Shown: in pieces, positions 53,494 through 63,031 of the stretch
Position numbering within the stretch: the stretch's first letter is position 1
Layout: each line of letters begins with the position of its first letter
NCBI GenBank assembly: GCA_022835595.1
Contig: BQUP01000003.1
Coordinates: 316,629-380,628 of the forward strand
DNA length: 64,000 nucleotides
DNA from: Cystobasidium ongulense
Taxonomy: Eukaryota; Basidiomycota; Cystobasidiomycetes; Cystobasidiales; Cystobasidiaceae
Reading direction: 5' to 3'
The notes under the pieces: model-generated
What the model was told of the DNA's origin: nothing
What the model saw: only the letters and a program-made list of their open reading frames with translations
Databases searched by the model: none
Translations under genes and position numbers: made by a program

Positions 53494-55912
<2,419 letters not shown>

Positions 55913-56700
55913 GATGGGACGCGGTGAATGAGAGAGCTAAATGATTGTGAGCGCACTTGCTGGCGTTGCTTGCAGTTGGTTGAGAGTGTGGATGCGAAGA
56001 AGAAAGAGGCGCGATGGCAGAGAAGACAGAAACGTGAGCTTTTGGGTCGAATCGAGGCGGCAATTGGGATCAAGGCAAGAGGCGAGCAGCAGCCACCTCG
56101 CTGTGCAGTGGAACGCAGTACAGGGCAACAAGCTGGACTGCAGTGCCATCCAGCTTCCGGCGCAATTACTCTACTGCTCGCCACTTGCCTGATCCGGAAG
56201 GCACAGCGAGCTCTGTCAGAGGCTGTCAAGCATTTGCGACTGACTAGTCTGGCTGGCTCGACTGGGAAGGCCTTCCCATGATTCATTGTCCTCATGCTCG
56301 ACCTGTGTCCTGGCCACACCTTTCCGCGCACAACAACGTAGCCACAACTTTGCTGTACAGTCCGAGATCCCTCCCCAGCTTTTACGCTTGTGGAGCCTTC
56401 AAATTGCTCAGATCTTCTGGCTCGAGTCGTCAAGAGAGAGTAATACATGCACACTTCTCTATGTTTATCGGTTTACAGCACAGATACGGTCCATGTGACG
56501 ACAGCCTGCCGTTCATTATGAGGGGGTATAATTGACTACATGTCTAAAAGAACTATCACTTCAAAAAGCTACAAGTAGTCCATTGTGGTAATGGGAACAA
56601 AGGTAATGTGTGTAATGTGCCCTCCCTTTTCCTTCATCCTCATCCTCGCTCTGCGGCGGGCCTCTTACCTACAAGGATCACATTGTGCCTAAAGACGAGT
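55913..56700. other. Intergenic, UGM promoter
   Basis: The 788 bp upstream of the minus-strand UGM start and after the stop of the next minus-strand gene. Open frames here run antisense to nothing known. I see no further gene. Confidence 0.5.
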
Positions 56701-58332
56701 CTAATCCGGGTCGTCGGCTGGCGCGGACATCGACATTCCCCCACTTGTCTCCTCGTCGCCATCTTGTGAACAGGTCTCGTCGTCGGCGTCAGCACAGTTG
56801 TCCCCGTCGCCAGTTGGTGGACAGGGCTCGCCGTCGGCGTCAGCACAGTTGTCCCCGTCGCCAGTTGGTGGACAGGGCTCGCCGTCGGCGTCAACACAGG
56901 TGTCCCCGTCGCCAGTTGGTGGACAGGGCTCGCCGTCGGCGTCAACACAGGTGTCCCCGTTGTTATCCTGTGTAGAGGTCTCGTCGTCGGCGTCAGGAGA
57001 CGAGTCTGCGTTTTCTTCGTCCGCATCGCACACTTCTTCTTCAGCCTCGTTAGAATCACTTTCTTCGCTTGACTCTGTAGAGCTCGCGTCCGCACCTGTA
57101 GCCGCCGGTGTCGTTTCTTCGTCCACTGAAGCAATAGATGTCTCCGCCCATTTGGGACGTCCTATTACCGGCCAACCATCTGGTCCAAAAGGATAGACTG
57201 TGACAAGCGGGCCATCGGCTGCCTGTGCCCCTCCTTGGTTTCCTGCATTCTCCTCAGAATCATCGCCTTCTTCGTCAGATGTACCTGAAGGTGAAGGACC
57301 TCCGCCAACCGACGGCATTCCGTCTGCGCCGGGACTAGCGGTTGTTGTCATAGCAGGGGTAGGAGCCGCAACTGTAGCTGCCGGTGAGGGTTCCTGCTCT
57401 CCTCCTCCTGCGCCTCCTCCTCCTGGTTCATCACCTACTCCTCCTGCGTCGGCATCCCCGTCTGATTCGTCGTCTGATTCTGCTGCGCTCTTTACGTACT
57501 TGCCGGGCAATGCACCCGGGCCAACCTTTGCGAGCGGAGCATCTACCCCCGCGTCAGGATCGACAGTTATGGTAACATCTATATAGACGGTGGTAACAGA
57601 AGGTGTAGGCACTGCGGCTAGTGGTGCAGGAGTTGGCCCAGGCGGCGTTTCGTCTTCTCCCTCTTGTCCAGCGGCCTCTTGCTGTCCTCCTGTCCCAGCC
57701 CCCCCTACGCCTGCACCTGTTCCGGTTGCTTGTGGTGAGGCTACTATATTCATTCCGTGATCCATGCCATGATCCATGCCATCTACGCCAGATCCTGCAT
57801 CTCCTGTTGGTATTTCTCCGTCTTCCCCTGCTGCCACAGTGACAGTCGTTTTAGCAAGTTTTGTGGTAACTTGCGTGACAACGGCAGTCTCAGTGACAGT
57901 TTGCTTAACGATGATAGTTTCACCCCCCGCGTTCTCAACTGGAAAGCGTGTTTTCGTCAAGGTGACCGGGCCGGAACGTGTTCCTTCTCCTAATCTACGA
58001 ATTTCCGTTACGACGTATGTCTCTCCCGCGAGGGGTGATGGCATCGTATCCTCTGCATACTTGGAGTCACCAGCTATCCGCTTGCCAGTAGCAGCGACGG
58101 TCCGGGTACGAGTGACAGTACGTCGAGTAGGGCAAGCCTGGGCGAAGTCAGTGACGGTTCGAGTGCGAGTAACAGTGCGTCGAGGTGGGCATCCGTGGGC
58201 GGAGATATACGGAAGCATTGTGGCTATCAGGACAGCCATGATTGCGAGCCGGTAGATTGTAGGTGTTCGTTTGTGTAAGGGTGGTATCTTGCTACCGTGG
58301 CGAGATGGCCCGCCAGTCTTCGGACACGACAT
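56701..58332 (-). CDS. Secreted Thr/Val-rich protein A with acidic Cys repeats
   Basis: I know no family for this protein. It is one uninterrupted frame of 543 residues from the ATG at 58332, or 512 from 58239, where MAVLIATMLPYISAHG forms a clean signal peptide. The latter start is preferred because proteins B and C also begin close to their signal peptides. Mature protein starts with two tandem copies of C-P-x-R-R-T-V-T-R-T-R-T-V (CPPRRTVTRTRTVT, then CPTRRTVTRTRTV). It continues with Thr/Val beta-prone stretches, a Met/His segment GMDHGMDHGM, Gly/Pro/acidic linkers, and four 17-residue repeats of the type GDTCVDADGEPCPPTGD, the last degenerate. It ends GGMSMSAPADDPD. Wall-associated or secreted is the likely fate. 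The shared AHG and CPPR motif tie it to the next gene. Confidence 0.72.
   Translation of the reverse strand: MSCPKTGGPSRHGSKIPPLHKRTPTIYRLAIMAVLIATMLPYISAHGCPPRRTVTRTRTVTDFAQACPTRRTVTRTRTVAATGKRIAGDSKYAEDTMPSPLAGETYVVTEIRRLGEGTRSGPVTLTKTRFPVENAGGETIIVKQTVTETAVVTQVTTKLAKTTVTVAAGEDGEIPTGDAGSGVDGMDHGMDHGMNIVASPQATGTGAGVGGAGTGGQQEAAGQEGEDETPPGPTPAPLAAVPTPSVTTVYIDVTITVDPDAGVDAPLAKVGPGALPGKYVKSAAESDDESDGDADAGGVGDEPGGGGAGGGEQEPSPAATVAAPTPAMTTTASPGADGMPSVGGGPSPSGTSDEEGDDSEENAGNQGGAQAADGPLVTVYPFGPDGWPVIGRPKWAETSIASVDEETTPAATGADASSTESSEESDSNEAEEEVCDADEENADSSPDADDETSTQDNNGDTCVDADGEPCPPTGDGDTCVDADGEPCPPTGDGDNCADADGEPCPPTGDGDNCADADDETCSQDGDEETSGGMSMSAPADDPD
56752..56975. repeat. 51-bp coding minisatellite in gene A
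   Basis: Four tandem units of 51 bp (17 codons) on the minus-strand reading frame encode GDTCVDADGEPCPPTGD-type repeats. Two copies have NCA in place of TCV, and the last is degenerate (ADDETCSQDG). Units are nearly identical at the DNA level, so copy number is probably unstable. Confidence 0.9.
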
Positions 58333-59692
58333 AATTATGACTTGATTTGTTTGAGAGATTGTGTTGTTGGTTGCGTGATTGCTTAGACCTTTGATTGTGT
58401 AAAGGGTATGCGTTGATGGTGTGCTGTTGGCTATGCGGAGCTGCTAATGATGTAGTCTAAGCAGCCCACCTGCGCGTATGGGTGCGGGCTTATCAGTCCA
58501 GCCGAATGAGCAGTAGAGGGTGCAGCATAAGCCTAGTGAGCGTGTGGTGGTGGTGACAAGAGCCAAGTTGGCTAGCTCAGTGTGCAGGCCCTATATACTC
58601 CAGCTGACTGCGTTGCAGCGCCCTGCAGCGGGACCGGCTGCGACGAGAGAGAAAGGTGGCGCTCCCAGCAAGGCTCGCATGTCCAGCTGGAGGTCATCTG
58701 CGAGTGGTGAGCTGATCTTGCGTCCGCATCTCTTTCTTGCCTCGGGACATGGTTTCGCATAGATCGCAATGAACTGTCGCTTCCGTCTCCCCTGCAGCCT
58801 GATTTGAGAGTTTCTGCGTTCACTCTTGCTTCTGGCCGATAAATAATGTTTGCGAGCCTGCGGTCGGACTCAAGAGGAGCATGCATTCGCCTGCCTTCCT
58901 GTCGCACTCCGCAAGTCGTATGCAATCAGTACGGAGCAGAGCGACCTACAAGTCTTAATGGGCCGAAATGTCTCAATCGGCTTCTTAGGGCGAAAGTGAA
59001 GTACACTGGCAGAGCGCGCAAGACCTGCTATGGAACGGGTGATACAGTCTCTCAACGAAAACGCAAGCTGCGGGCTAAGCAAAGGAGCAGATGCAATGTC
59101 CTCAACATCAGTCACGAAGAAACGTCCAGGATGTTATTGAGAATTTCTATGAAGGAAAGCAGGTACTTGTATGGAATGTGTGCTAAGGTTCCAACAGGGT
59201 ATCAAGCTCAAACACTCTAGAAACAGTCGCATGAGACTGACATACATCTATCGTAAGTTGGTATTTTGGGGTATCATACAAAGTCTTCGCCGTCAGGATG
59301 GTATTGCAACGACAATGCGACGAATATCGTTTCACGAGATCCCTGGTACTTCAACAAGACACTTCTGCTTGTACAATTTGGTGTCAAATGAGGTGTCGAG
59401 GTCGGCGTCCGAGTTCCCGGCAATCGTACATCAGACGATGTTCTGGCATACGCATAGTCCGTCAATGTCTTGCTGTTTTCACATCCGCACCACCCTATAT
59501 CGCGGTCTCAGTTCGCTTGTATGCGAAGACAGCCAACTGACAAGGTAGGTTGCTTGAAGCATGTGAGGCGTAGCATCGCGAAAGTGATCACGTCTCCGAT
59601 TCCAGTATGAATTTGACGGGCTTGACCTGTACACATCGCACACAACATACCGTCAGTCGCTATAACAATCTTCCCTGGAGTACTGTAATCGG
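58333..59692. other. Intergenic between genes A and B
   Basis: 1.36 kb between the start of A and the stop of B, both minus-strand. A 124-codon plus-strand frame at 58846-59220 has no family-like features. No other gene was supported. Confidence 0.45.
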
Positions 59693-60964
59693 CTAGATCA
59701 TCGAACGTACACTCTTATCTTCTTTGTAGCCAAACTTCTCCCATATGTTGAGACACATGTCAAAATTGTTGTCGTCCATATGGTCGGCAGCCATAAGTTT
59801 GATTTCCTTATTGTTCGATTTGAAGGTGAGAATTCCTGTTGGGTAGGAGCAAAAATTCAGCAACGCAGCTGAAAGACATGAACTCCTTTGACCAGGCGTC
59901 ATAAAAGAATAAGCAACTCACTGCCACATATACCTGGTTCGGTAGGAGTAATAGCGCCACCTGCAGGGAAGAATTGAGTCCAAAGATATTTTGGCACCGA
60001 TACACGGTCGAGGGGATTATCCAGTAAGTCAGGCATGTTGATAATTTTACACGCTCCTCTGGAGTCATAGACACCACCCGGAGCAGAACATTCTGCTCCA
60101 TGCTCGGTTTCATGGAAATAAGACATTTCATCCTCGTACTCTTGACCAGCAACGACTTTGGGAAAATCAGATGAAGAGGTCGAAGTCTGAATAGTACCAC
60201 TAGTGGCTGTAGGGGCTGTCACTCCTGGGTCAGTATTGCTAGGAGAGGGATCATGACGGTTTTTTGAGCCATATGCGTCCGACTAACCAGCTTTCCCAGC
60301 AGCGACAGACGGCATTCCCATATCCATGTCCATATCCATATCGTCATCGGCTTCCGCTTTTGCAAATGACCCGCCCGATGAACCTCCGATTTCATTTGGC
60401 CCGGCAGTAGGTAAATAAAGTACAGAAGCATCATCTACGAAAGTCTCCCCATTAGCATCAGTATAAACGTATTCATACTCGACGGCGGCTTCATCGCTTG
60501 AACCAGAAGGGGAATCATTGATTGGATCGGACTGGGCTTTTTGGCCAGATTGGAAAATATCTGAGTTTGGTATTTTTCCACAACATGGGGCAGTCGTACA
60601 AAGCAAAAAGCGGAAGATGCATAGTCAGCTCAAGCACGGGTTCTATGTGCTTTACATGGGAACTATAGACTGCTAGCTCACCTCCCTTGCCCGGGGTTCC
60701 GCCTCCACCTGTCGAGCCACGGGTTACCGTGTGGAATCTAGTAACTACCACAGTTCTCATTGCTCCTTTCTGGAATGCAGCGTCCGGCGCTGGAGTTATT
60801 CCACCTACGGTAACGGTCTTCGTTCTAGTGACGGTAGAACGAGGAGGACAGGGAGTACAGGCCTCCTCTTCATCTTCTTCTTCCCCTCCATGAGCATTGA
60901 TTCCCTGCAGAGCAGCTGCCAGCAGTACTACCCGAGCAAAAACTGACGTGAAGGGAAGTATCAT
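59693..60964 (-). CDS. Secreted protein B with CPPR motif and DPBB-like C-terminus
   Basis: Four exons (60964-about 60680, about 60568-60290, about 60232-59925, about 59841-59693) give roughly 340 residues. The signal peptide (ARVVLLAAALQGINAHG) is followed by an acidic run, then CPPRSTVTRTKTVTVGG, the motif shared with protein A. A Met/Asp stretch (DDDMDMDMDMGMPS) precedes a C-terminal domain: ECSAPGGVYDSRGACKI, then LDRVSVPKYLWTQFFPAGGA, GICGRILTFKSNNKEI, LMAADHMDDNNFDMCLNIWE and FGYKEDKS, ending VRSMI. The spacing of Cys and the A-D motif before a helix resemble double-psi beta-barrel proteins of the RlpA/barwin-like type. That group includes many fungal secreted proteins. Its relation to enzymes is not implied; some bind glycans. 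Confidence 0.65.
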
Positions 60965-61806
60965 GATATCTGAGGCCTGTGGTTGTGAAAGAGACAGTAC
61001 GCTGTGTCTATGAGGATGGCTGTGAGTGAGTAGATCGGAGGGCTGTGTGAAATTGCAAATGCTACCACGCCACCGATGATAACAGGGTTGTATTGGTGTC
61101 GGAGTCTGACGGAACGAGAACTCTGCTGGCCTGCAGCTGTCTAAGTCTACCAAAGAGACGGTGTAGGCAGTCGAGCGAAGTTTGACTTAGATCGGGAGCC
61201 CAGCGCAGAGTGTTGGCGATTGTGGGATGTAGTCAAAGTGCTGATGATGCCCAGTCGGGTCTGCTTCGTCTCTTGATACGACGCGAGAACAGCAATTCTC
61301 CTGTATCCGAATCGTTTGCTTCTAGTATCCAGCGTGCGTGTCGTATCAGTGCAGTTCCAAGAGTAGAGATGGCGACTCCAGCCGGAGATGAACCCATTTC
61401 GCCAGGATGCAAGGCTCGTTTCCGAGTTTGTAGTTGCTGTGTCTGTAAGCGGCGAATTCGATGCTTGCTAGTGGTATACTTTCCTTGTGAATCAGGTCGA
61501 GTGTTTGTGCTGAGCGAAAGGAATTGATTTGGGTAATACCCATGCGCTTGGAGGGAGGTAGCAGCGGATTTAGCAGAGGCCAGGGAAAGTTGTGACATAT
61601 ATGTGATGGTGGACTATTGACTCTGTGGCTGTGCAAACTAGCGGTGAGTCACACGAGGGTCACACGCATCAACGAAGTACAGCCGCGGCAACCACTTGGA
61701 TCGTGCTCGTCACCTTCAAATCATAGAGTCTGCACATTGTAACTACTTCACTGGGTATCATATCGAAGGGGAATACCAACGCGGGAATCATCAAAGCTCG
61801 TCTCAA
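60965..61806. other. Intergenic between genes B and C
   Basis: About 0.84 kb of B promoter and C 3' flank. Open frames on both strands lack support. No repeat was seen. Confidence 0.45.
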
Positions 61807-63031
61807 TCAAACGTATACTCTGCCTGAAATCGCTATTAGAAGGGAGAGACGATTCAAAAACGGAGAAAGGGGTAGTGGGATATATAAGAGAGAGTAAGTA
61901 TACGTATGTGTGAGTGTGTGTGTGTTTAGGAGAAAAGGAAAACTCACACCTCCACCGTTATCATATCCAAATTCAACCCATAAATCCATACATAAATCAA
62001 AAGAAGTACCTAAATTTCTGTCTGCTATTATCGCTTTACCTATTTTACCATTTGCAGCTTTGATAGTTACAGTTTCTTTTGTTTTTTTGCACATTTCACA
62101 GGATGTGTTTTGTTTGTTTTTTTGAGTATATTGTGAGTTTCAATCAGGGTTTTTGTGGTTTTCGGGTTTTTTCATGGTGAGAGATGAAGAGCATTGAAAA
62201 TGACTTAGTCACTGCAATGCATCTATGCATTCGCGGAAACGGGTAGGAAAAATTAAACGTAAAGATTGACTCACTTCCGCATAGAGTATTATGTTGACTT
62301 GCACCAAATCCATCAAAGATAGAATTCGGTACCGCTAATCTCGGTAATTGGATACCTAGCGTATCCGGGAAGTAGGTCGATAGACCACAAGCACCACCTG
62401 TATTATATGTATTCGAACATACTTCAGGTGAATCATAACTGTATACCGATAATTCACATGGTTTGAAACCTGCAACTTCTGCTTTAGACTCGAATGATGC
62501 GGCGCGATTTACAGGAGCAGCGGGGACTTTAGGTATAACCGGAACTTCAGGGACAACAGGAGCCGGAGTAGTAGTACGAGTTACTGGTTGTGTTGAAGTG
62601 GAGGGAAGAGGTAGAACAGAGGAGGTTGGGGATGCTGCAGGAGCAGAAGAATCTACTAGAGCAGAAGCAAGATAGGAAGTCGAGAGAATCGAAGAGGTAG
62701 AGGTAGAAGGAGAAAGTTTTTGTGAATCATAGTCTTGTGGCAGTTCGAGGGCATCTGCTATCTTATATTCATGTACCGGTTTCTTGACATGTTTTTCGAT
62801 TCTTTTTGTAGCAGTTATAGTTACCAAGGTAGTTGTGATAGTGGTGACTGTATGCTCGACCGTCCTTGTAGGGGCGGGATATACCGAAATTGTACTCGTT
62901 ATGGTCCTCCGAGGCACACAATACCCCCCTCTATGCACTACGTAAGACTTTGCTGTGCTTGGAAGTGGCGCTAACAAGGAGGTGAGGAGGGCGAGGATTG
63001 CAACGACACGAGTCGTAGACGATAGAACCAT
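61807..63031 (-). CDS. Secreted protein C with PRRT motif and DPBB-like C-terminus
   Basis: Three exons (63031-62275, 62075-61950, 61823-61807) give 299 residues. The signal peptide (VVAILALLTSLLAPLPSTA) is followed by CVPRRTITSTISV, a degenerate form of the motif in A and B, then Thr/Val-rich stretches and a Ser/Thr/Pro linker. The C-terminal domain reads CELSVYSYDSPEVC, YNTGGACGLSTYFPDTLGI, NTLCGKTVTIKAANGK, IIADRNLGTSFDLCMDLWVE and FGYDNGGG, and ends RVYV. The CGKTVTI and I-A-D segments are typical of double-psi beta-barrel secreted proteins. The exon 2 acceptor at 62076 was chosen because it restores CGKTVTI. Reading on from exon 1 instead gives an unlike tail to a stop at 62144. Confidence 0.7.

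What the first reader, a model, noticed from the sequence alone, without database searches (positions are those of the whole stretch)
56701..63031. Three-gene secreted family with a C-x-P-R-x-T-[VI]-T motif
Genes A, B and C lie in a row on one strand. Each encodes a signal peptide followed by a Cys-Pro-Arg-Thr/Val motif (CPPRRTVTRTRTVT, CPPRSTVTRTKTVT, CVPRRTITSTISV). A and B also share AHG just after the signal peptide. B and C share a double-psi beta-barrel-like C-terminus with similar ends (KSVRSMI, GGRVYV). The N-terminal motif does not belong to any family I know. The arrangement looks like local duplication followed by domain exchange, which suits a variable surface or secreted protein group.
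Basis: partly seen in the sequence, partly recalled or inferred. Interest (0 to 1): 0.72.

Follow-up and report, generated by a model that had tools for sequence, protein, structure and literature searches.

The report
Clustered secreted stalk-and-barrel fungal proteins
Three neighbouring fungal genes encode probably secreted proteins that share a short threonine-rich stalk, and two of them carry a divergent barrel domain related to plant-defence and cell-wall-loosening proteins, so this is a modest new variant of a known kind of protein.

Summary
Three adjacent minus-strand genes are really there: A (58332-56701, one exon, 543 aa), B (60964-59588, five exons, 340 aa) and C (63031-61803, three exons, 301 aa). 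Each has a signal-peptide-like start and a C-x-P-R-x-T-[VI]-T stalk. The back-translated motif has 7 sites in the 19.8-Mb genome (reversed control 4). Three are these genes, within 4.75 kb; a fourth is in a CAP/PR-1-type gene on another contig, so the stalk recurs with different domains. B and C are true paralogues in their C-terminal domain (BLASTP E 9e-12; two matching introns). That domain is probably a divergent double-psi beta-barrel without D-x-C-x-x-C, reached only through a stepping-stone gene and a profile comparison; Pfam and PDB give no hit. No barrel is seen in A. A and B also share a predicted His-Gly mature start and a rare Met-rich block, noticed after the fact. Best reading: locally duplicated Thr-rich secreted proteins whose barrel binds polysaccharide without cutting it. 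Copper binding by A and B is possible but unproven. No related genomes were held, so conservation is untested.

The parts
56701..58332 (-). Gene A, single exon, 543 aa: signal-peptide-like stretch, doubled CxPRxTVT stalk, Met/His block, acidic Gly-rich region, Cys-containing tandem repeats; no barrel seen. An alternative start lies at 58239.
   Evidence: open frame and translation; no Pfam family at E<=5
58093..58191 (-). A: doubled stalk unit CPPRRTVTRTRTVT-DFAQA-CPTRRTVTRTRTVA; a 57-bp tandem duplication
   Evidence: 58092-58201, period 57, 1.9 copies, 79% matches
57739..57777 (-). A: Met/His block MDHGMDHGMNIVA, 8 of 13 residues as in B
56770..56955 (-). A: C-terminal tandem repeats of DTCVDADGEPCPPTGDG (51-bp unit, 4.1 copies over 56750-56960)
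59588..60964 (-). Gene B, exons 60964-60682, 60560-60288, 60224-59922, 59835-59711, 59626-59588; 340 aa
   Evidence: my splice-site reading
60809..60850 (-). B: stalk motif CPPRSTVTRTKTVT; mature N-terminus HGGEEE inferred at 60892
60301..60339 (-). B: Met block MDMDMDMGMPSVA
59591..60069 (-). B: divergent double-psi beta-barrel-like domain (spliced), YDSRGAC...CGR...AADH...FDMC...FGY...VKFIL
61803..63031 (-). Gene C, exons 63031-62275, 62075-61948, 61823-61803; 301 aa
   Evidence: my splice-site reading
62882..62920 (-). C: stalk motif CVPRRTITSTISV
61806..62407 (-). C: divergent double-psi beta-barrel-like domain (spliced), YNTGGACG...CGK...IADR...FDLC...FGY

Best explanation
A, B and C are a small local family of secreted fungal proteins of the wall or the medium. 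A signal peptide sends them out. A short Cys-Pro-Arg plus alternating Thr/Val-Arg stalk follows, which is probably O-mannosylated and extended, and its Cys may form a disulfide. In B and C this stalk and a variable linker carry a single C-terminal double-psi beta-barrel related to barwin and to the expansin/loosenin barrel. The barrel probably binds wall or substrate polysaccharide without cutting it. It keeps the expansin-type Asp but lacks the D-x-C-x-x-C cysteines and has a Cys two residues after that Asp instead, so its disulfides are probably rewired. A has the stalk and a Met/His block but no visible barrel; it ends in acidic Cys-containing repeats. Shown: B-C homology, rarity and clustering of the stalk motif, its recurrence in a CAP-type gene. 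Read from the sequence by me: exon structure. Inferred: secretion, glycosylation, barrel fold, polysaccharide binding.
For: Motif clustering and rarity; stalk similarity above shuffles; B-C domain BLASTP E 8.9e-12 and two matching intron positions and phases; profile-profile match of B+C to known double-psi barrels, E 0.0011, probability 20%, 0 of 100 column shuffles as good, reversed profile score 12.3 against 23.85; own-genome stepping stone L044: C scores 65 (best of 3000 shuffles 59), B 48 (best 47); L044 itself is weakly barwin-like in Pfam (E 0.0025, below the cut-off) and PDB (sugarwin 0.0018, barwin 0.0071); invariant C-G, Asp and second Asp columns in a five-sequence alignment; hydrophobic N-terminal stretches and no hydrophobic C-terminal tail; similar stalk in a gene with a CAP domain (PF00188, E 6.1e-18).
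Against: No Pfam family for A, B or C even at E<=5; no PDB match of C's domain, and the three weak PDB profile hits of B+C bear names of unrelated proteins. PF03330 in the own genome rings on five other loci, not on B or C. Against the classical barrel L011, B and C do no better than shuffles (2299 and 644 of 3000 as good). B beats the L044 shuffles by one point only, and L044's exon join is my own. B has Val where expansins have the Thr that pairs with the conserved Asp. A-B and A-C similarity vanishes under low-complexity filtering.
Confidence: 0.6

Rival explanations
1. A and B are extracellular copper-binding proteins: cleavage leaves an N-terminal His-Gly, and the Met-rich blocks (MDHGMDHGM, MDMDMDMGM) bind Cu(I) as the Mets motifs of copper transporters do; they buffer or deliver copper at the wall.
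For: ISA|HG and INA|HG cleavage sites (sequence; the -3/-1 rule is recalled); a pattern for such Met blocks has 3 sites in the genome (control 1): A, B and one in a frame of under 40 aa that overlaps a 176-aa frame; the one Ctr transporter detected has the upstream exon MDHGSSGMDMGGMDMGG (exon link is my reading); the copper-binding and release protein Cbi1/Bim1 of Cryptococcus works in uptake through Ctr1 (abstract start of PMC9258870 in the listing; its N-terminal His is recalled).
Against: The pattern was made after seeing A and B. The A-B middle regions do not beat shuffles (514 of 1000 as good ungapped; 15 of 500 gapped). C has neither feature. No copper family was found by Pfam. Met-Asp runs also occur in acidic low-complexity sequence.
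Confidence: 0.15
2. The stalk motif is convergent low-complexity sequence of Thr-rich secreted proteins, and only the B-C domain is a real family; A is an unrelated neighbour.
For: A-B and A-C hits vanish with SEG and composition correction; B-C stalks alone are weak (35 of 3000); of the 12 residues shared by the A and B motifs only 3 use the same codon.
Against: Genome-wide rarity with three of seven sites in three neighbouring genes; TVTxTxTVT-type sequence is no commoner than the reversed control (7 against 17).
Confidence: 0.2
3. B and C are secreted inhibitors, toxins or host-directed effectors built on a barwin-like barrel rather than wall-modifying proteins.
For: Nearest weak hits of the stepping stone are barwin-type proteins; a barrel-domain effector of a wheat rust is in print (PMC11820871, title and abstract start in the listing).
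Against: No host or expression information; a Thr-rich stalk suits wall retention (inference).
Confidence: 0.1

Closest known systems
Barwin-type double-psi beta-barrels (Pfam PF00967; sugarwin, barwin)
   Same: Reached through the own-genome stepping stone L044: C-G strand start and the Asp that follows.
   Different: B and C themselves give no Pfam match and C no PDB match; different Cys pattern; long Thr-rich N-terminal stalk.
Loosenins and expansin domain 1 (PF03330, PF22514)
   Same: Single barrel without expansin domain 2; GAC, C-G and the Asp residues that align with LOOS1 Asp93 and Asp105 (alignment; LOOS1 residues from passages of PMC9888185 and PMC3050684; LOOS1 itself was not aligned).
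   Different: Cys95 and Cys98 equivalents absent, a new Cys two residues after the second Asp; Thr31 equivalent is Val in B; stalk and linker added.
CAP/PR-1-type protein of the same genome (L015)
   Same: Similar stalk CSPRETVTITRTAYVT...THTVTR.
   Different: C-terminal CAP domain; stalk at about residue 177; another contig.
Cbi1/Bim1 and other histidine-brace proteins
   Same: Inferred N-terminal His after signal cleavage (A, B).
   Different: No such family found by Pfam; no second brace residue identified.

Membership tests
Double-psi beta-barrel superfamily (barwin/RlpA/expansin D1) | Match to a curated family model (DPBB_1, Barwin, EXPB1_D1) | tested here: not met
   B and C: 0 families at E<=5; PF03330 own-genome search does not ring on them
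Double-psi beta-barrel superfamily (barwin/RlpA/expansin D1) | Sequence-profile relationship to known members | tested here: met
   weak: hhalign E 0.0011, 43 columns, probability 20%, 0 of 100 shuffles; C and B against L044 0 of 3000 shuffles as good, B by one point; L044 barwin-like below cut-off; direct comparison with L011 fails
Double-psi beta-barrel superfamily (barwin/RlpA/expansin D1) | C-G strand start, Asp93-type and Asp105-type residues | tested here: met
   invariant in the five-sequence alignment
Double-psi beta-barrel superfamily (barwin/RlpA/expansin D1) | The fold itself | not testable with these tools
Loosenin | Conserved Cys40, Cys74, Cys95, Cys98 and Thr31-Asp105 pair | tested here: not met
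   Cys40 and Cys74 equivalents present, Cys95 and Cys98 absent in B and C; Thr31 equivalent T in C, V in B (definitions from passages)
Loosenin | Non-lytic loosening of cellulose or chitin | not testable with these tools
   needs purified protein
Expansin | Second domain D2 behind the barrel | tested here: not met
   B and C end directly after the barrel region in my models
Histidine-brace copper protein (LPMO, Bim1) | Mature N-terminal His | tested here: inconclusive
   cleavage before HG inferred for A and B by eye (sequence); no signal-peptide program was run
Histidine-brace copper protein (LPMO, Bim1) | Known LPMO or Bim1-type domain | tested here: not met
   no Pfam family for A or B
GPI-anchored surface protein | Hydrophobic C-terminal tail | tested here: not met
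   best 13-residue hydropathy in the last 40: A -0.39, B 0.1, C 1.0

The most novel reading that the evidence does not exclude
A and B are the two arms of an unrecognised extracellular copper-handling module: a secreted N-terminal-His, Cys-stalk, Met-block glycoprotein that in B is fused to a disulfide-rewired polysaccharide-binding barrel, so that copper is held on the cell wall by a wall-binding carrier, with A as the soluble form.
Probability: 0.08. Interest if true: 0.65.

Novelty: new variant of a known kind. Interest (0 to 1): 0.32.

Why it matters
It suggests a short stalk module recurring in one genome in front of two different secreted domains (barrel and CAP), and a barrel branch that family libraries miss because it lacks the D-x-C-x-x-C signature. 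If the disulfide is rewired as inferred, current searches under-count fungal barrel proteins. If the copper reading held, it would link copper handling to wall-binding proteins.

Tried and rejected
Pfam (A, B, C), PDB sequence (C's domain) and PDB profile (B+C) searches gave nothing usable. A scan of prokaryote contigs with the B+C profile confirmed 1 of 42 matched stretches, in a Bdellovibrio contig, out of frame with the 622-aa frame that lies there; judged spurious. Viral contigs: 121 stretches, none confirmed. The four motif sites outside the cluster: one is the CAP-type gene, one lies out of frame in a long Gln-rich frame, two are in frames of 65 and 152 aa with no Thr-rich stalk seen. 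A looser pattern gave 14 sites (control 21), 5 of them in A (two), B, C and the CAP-type gene; of the other 9 one falls in the barrel strand of L044, which is how L044 was found, and the rest showed no stalk. TVTxTxTVT: 7 sites, control 17; two are A and B, the other five were judged from the matched letters alone. The idea that A and B middles are homologous beyond the Met block failed against shuffles (15 of 500 as good gapped; 514 of 1000 ungapped). In one search I first read L012-L014 in the wrong orientation; read rightly they are barrel genes. Literature searches; only passages of two papers were seen; no listed title or abstract start described such a cluster.
Full report
Setting. The window lies in a genome of 19,773,046 bases in 19 contigs, G000:C3:316629-380628. 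Short introns, a neighbour whose PDB matches at E<=1e-5 are UDP-galactopyranose mutases (14 of 14 listed) and a crooked-neck splicing factor fit a fungus. The species was not identified and no relatives are held. That it is a basidiomycete yeast is my guess from recall.

Gene models. All three genes are on the minus strand. A is one open frame, 58332-56701, 543 aa, with a second possible start at 58239. B needs four introns and C two, read by me from donor and acceptor sites. Its C ending GGRVYV needs a GTGTGA donor; GTGAGT, two bases further 3', gives GGGAEYTFD. RNA is needed to settle both.

Is the motif real? The quoted motifs are exact. Back-translated (TGYNNNCCNMGNNNNACNRTNAC), the motif has 7 sites in the genome, against 4 for the reversed control. 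Three are A, B and C, spanning about 4.75 kb; random placement of 7 sites does this in 12 of 2,000,000 draws. For the mature N-terminal 60 residues, 0 of 3000 shuffles are as good for A-B, 2 of 3000 for A-C and 35 of 3000 for B-C. Against: BLASTP with low-complexity filter and composition correction shows no A-B or A-C relation. The alignments also place a second, looser Thr-rich strand behind the first; in A it is a 57-bp tandem duplication (79% matches). Of the 12 residues shared by the A and B motifs only 3 use the same codon, so any common origin is not recent.

A fourth user of the stalk. One other motif site (L015, contig C1) lies in a gene whose N-terminus reads like a signal peptide, with the stretch CSPRETVTITRTAYVTSTATQISTKYITSTHTVTR from residue 177, a Pro-rich linker and a CAP domain (PF00188, E 6.1e-18 on my exon join). 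Against this stretch 1 (A), 1 (B) and 11 (C) of 3000 shuffles are as good; this is optimistic, as the stretch was picked for the motif. So the stalk probably sits in front of different secreted domains.

The C-terminal domain of B and C. B and C match each other over 88 columns at E 8.9e-12. Protein searches of the genome at E<=10 list only B and C, but they missed L044 (below), so they are not exhaustive. Pfam gives nothing for either, PDB nothing for C's domain and no barrel for the B+C profile. Two lines support a double-psi barrel. First, the B+C profile against a profile of L011 and four PDB barrels gives E 0.0011 over 43 columns, probability 20%, and 0 of 100 column shuffles score as high. 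Second, L044 (contig C3, 2.08 Mb), found by accident, is intermediate: C scores 65 (best of 3000 shuffles 59) and B 48 (best 47) against it, while L044 is weakly barwin-like, below Pfam's cut-off. Against the classical barrel L011 neither beats shuffles. The alignment keeps the first Cys, C-G, an Asp and a second Asp. By the loosenin literature (passages of PMC9888185 and PMC3050684) the second Asp is the one essential in the bacterial expansin BsEXLX1, and a Thr near the start of the barrel pairs with it. C has T there, B has V. The D-x-C-x-x-C cysteines are missing in both, and F-D-(L/M)-C has a new one. L044 also lacks D-x-C, so this loss is not private to B and C. The genome holds at least five more barrel genes, the PF03330 loci L010-L014 (none over the family's cut-off; readings); the stalk pattern has no site at any of them.

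A and B share more. Both would start with His-Gly after cleavage (inferred). Both have a Met block, MDHGMDHGMNIVA and MDMDMDMGMPSVA, 8 of 13 identical. A pattern for such blocks has 3 sites genome-wide (control 1): A, B and one in a short frame overlapping a longer one. The one Ctr copper transporter found has an upstream exon MDHGSSGMDMGGMDMGG. This is suggestive of copper, but the pattern was drawn after seeing A and B, and the A-B middle regions as a whole do not beat shuffles (15 of 500 as good gapped; 514 of 1000 ungapped).

Function. The most likely reading is a secreted, Thr-glycosylated group in the wall or medium in which the barrel of B and C binds polysaccharide without hydrolysis. 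No hydrophobic C-terminal tail speaks for a GPI anchor. Secretion, glycosylation, fold and binding are inferred, not shown. What the acidic repeat tail of A does is open; cation binding or a spacer are guesses.

Novelty. Barrel proteins with Thr-rich stalks are an ordinary kind of fungal secreted protein (recalled). The combination here, a stalk shared with a CAP-type protein and a barrel branch below the reach of family models, is a new variant of a known kind. Literature searches listed nothing whose title or abstract start describes it; that library lacks most subscription journals.

Noticed in passing
L015 (G000:C1, around 311,500-313,100): CAP/PR-1-type gene with a similar CxPRxTVT stalk at about residue 177, followed by a Pro/Lys/Glu-rich linker.
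   Followed up: yes
L044 (G000:C3, around 2,081,500): Barwin-like single-barrel gene with a signal-peptide-like start that also lacks the D-x-C motif and links B and C to classical barrels.
   Followed up: partly
L010-L014 (G000:C7:876386, C4:1362567, C8:864170, C1:1697535, C8:1019179): Five more barrel genes by PF03330, none over the family's cut-off; the stalk pattern has no site at any of them. L012 has a Ser/Thr/Pro-rich stretch before its barrel.
   Followed up: partly
window about 53522-55920, minus strand: UDP-galactopyranose mutase gene next to A, by PDB matches of one exon frame.
   Followed up: no
window 56750-56960, minus strand: Nearly identical 51-bp repeats at the end of A, coding for DTCVDADGEPCPPTGDG; they might vary in copy number between strains (inference).
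   Followed up: no
L030 2847-4074 (just beyond the window): Frames that read like a secreted Ser/Thr-rich protein of a type common in basidiomycetes (recalled), with a hydrophobic C-terminal end.
   Followed up: no
L029 (G000:C7:124761-125333): Only one Ctr-type copper transporter was detected at E<=0.01; an upstream exon reads MDHGSSGMDMGGMDMGG.
   Followed up: partly
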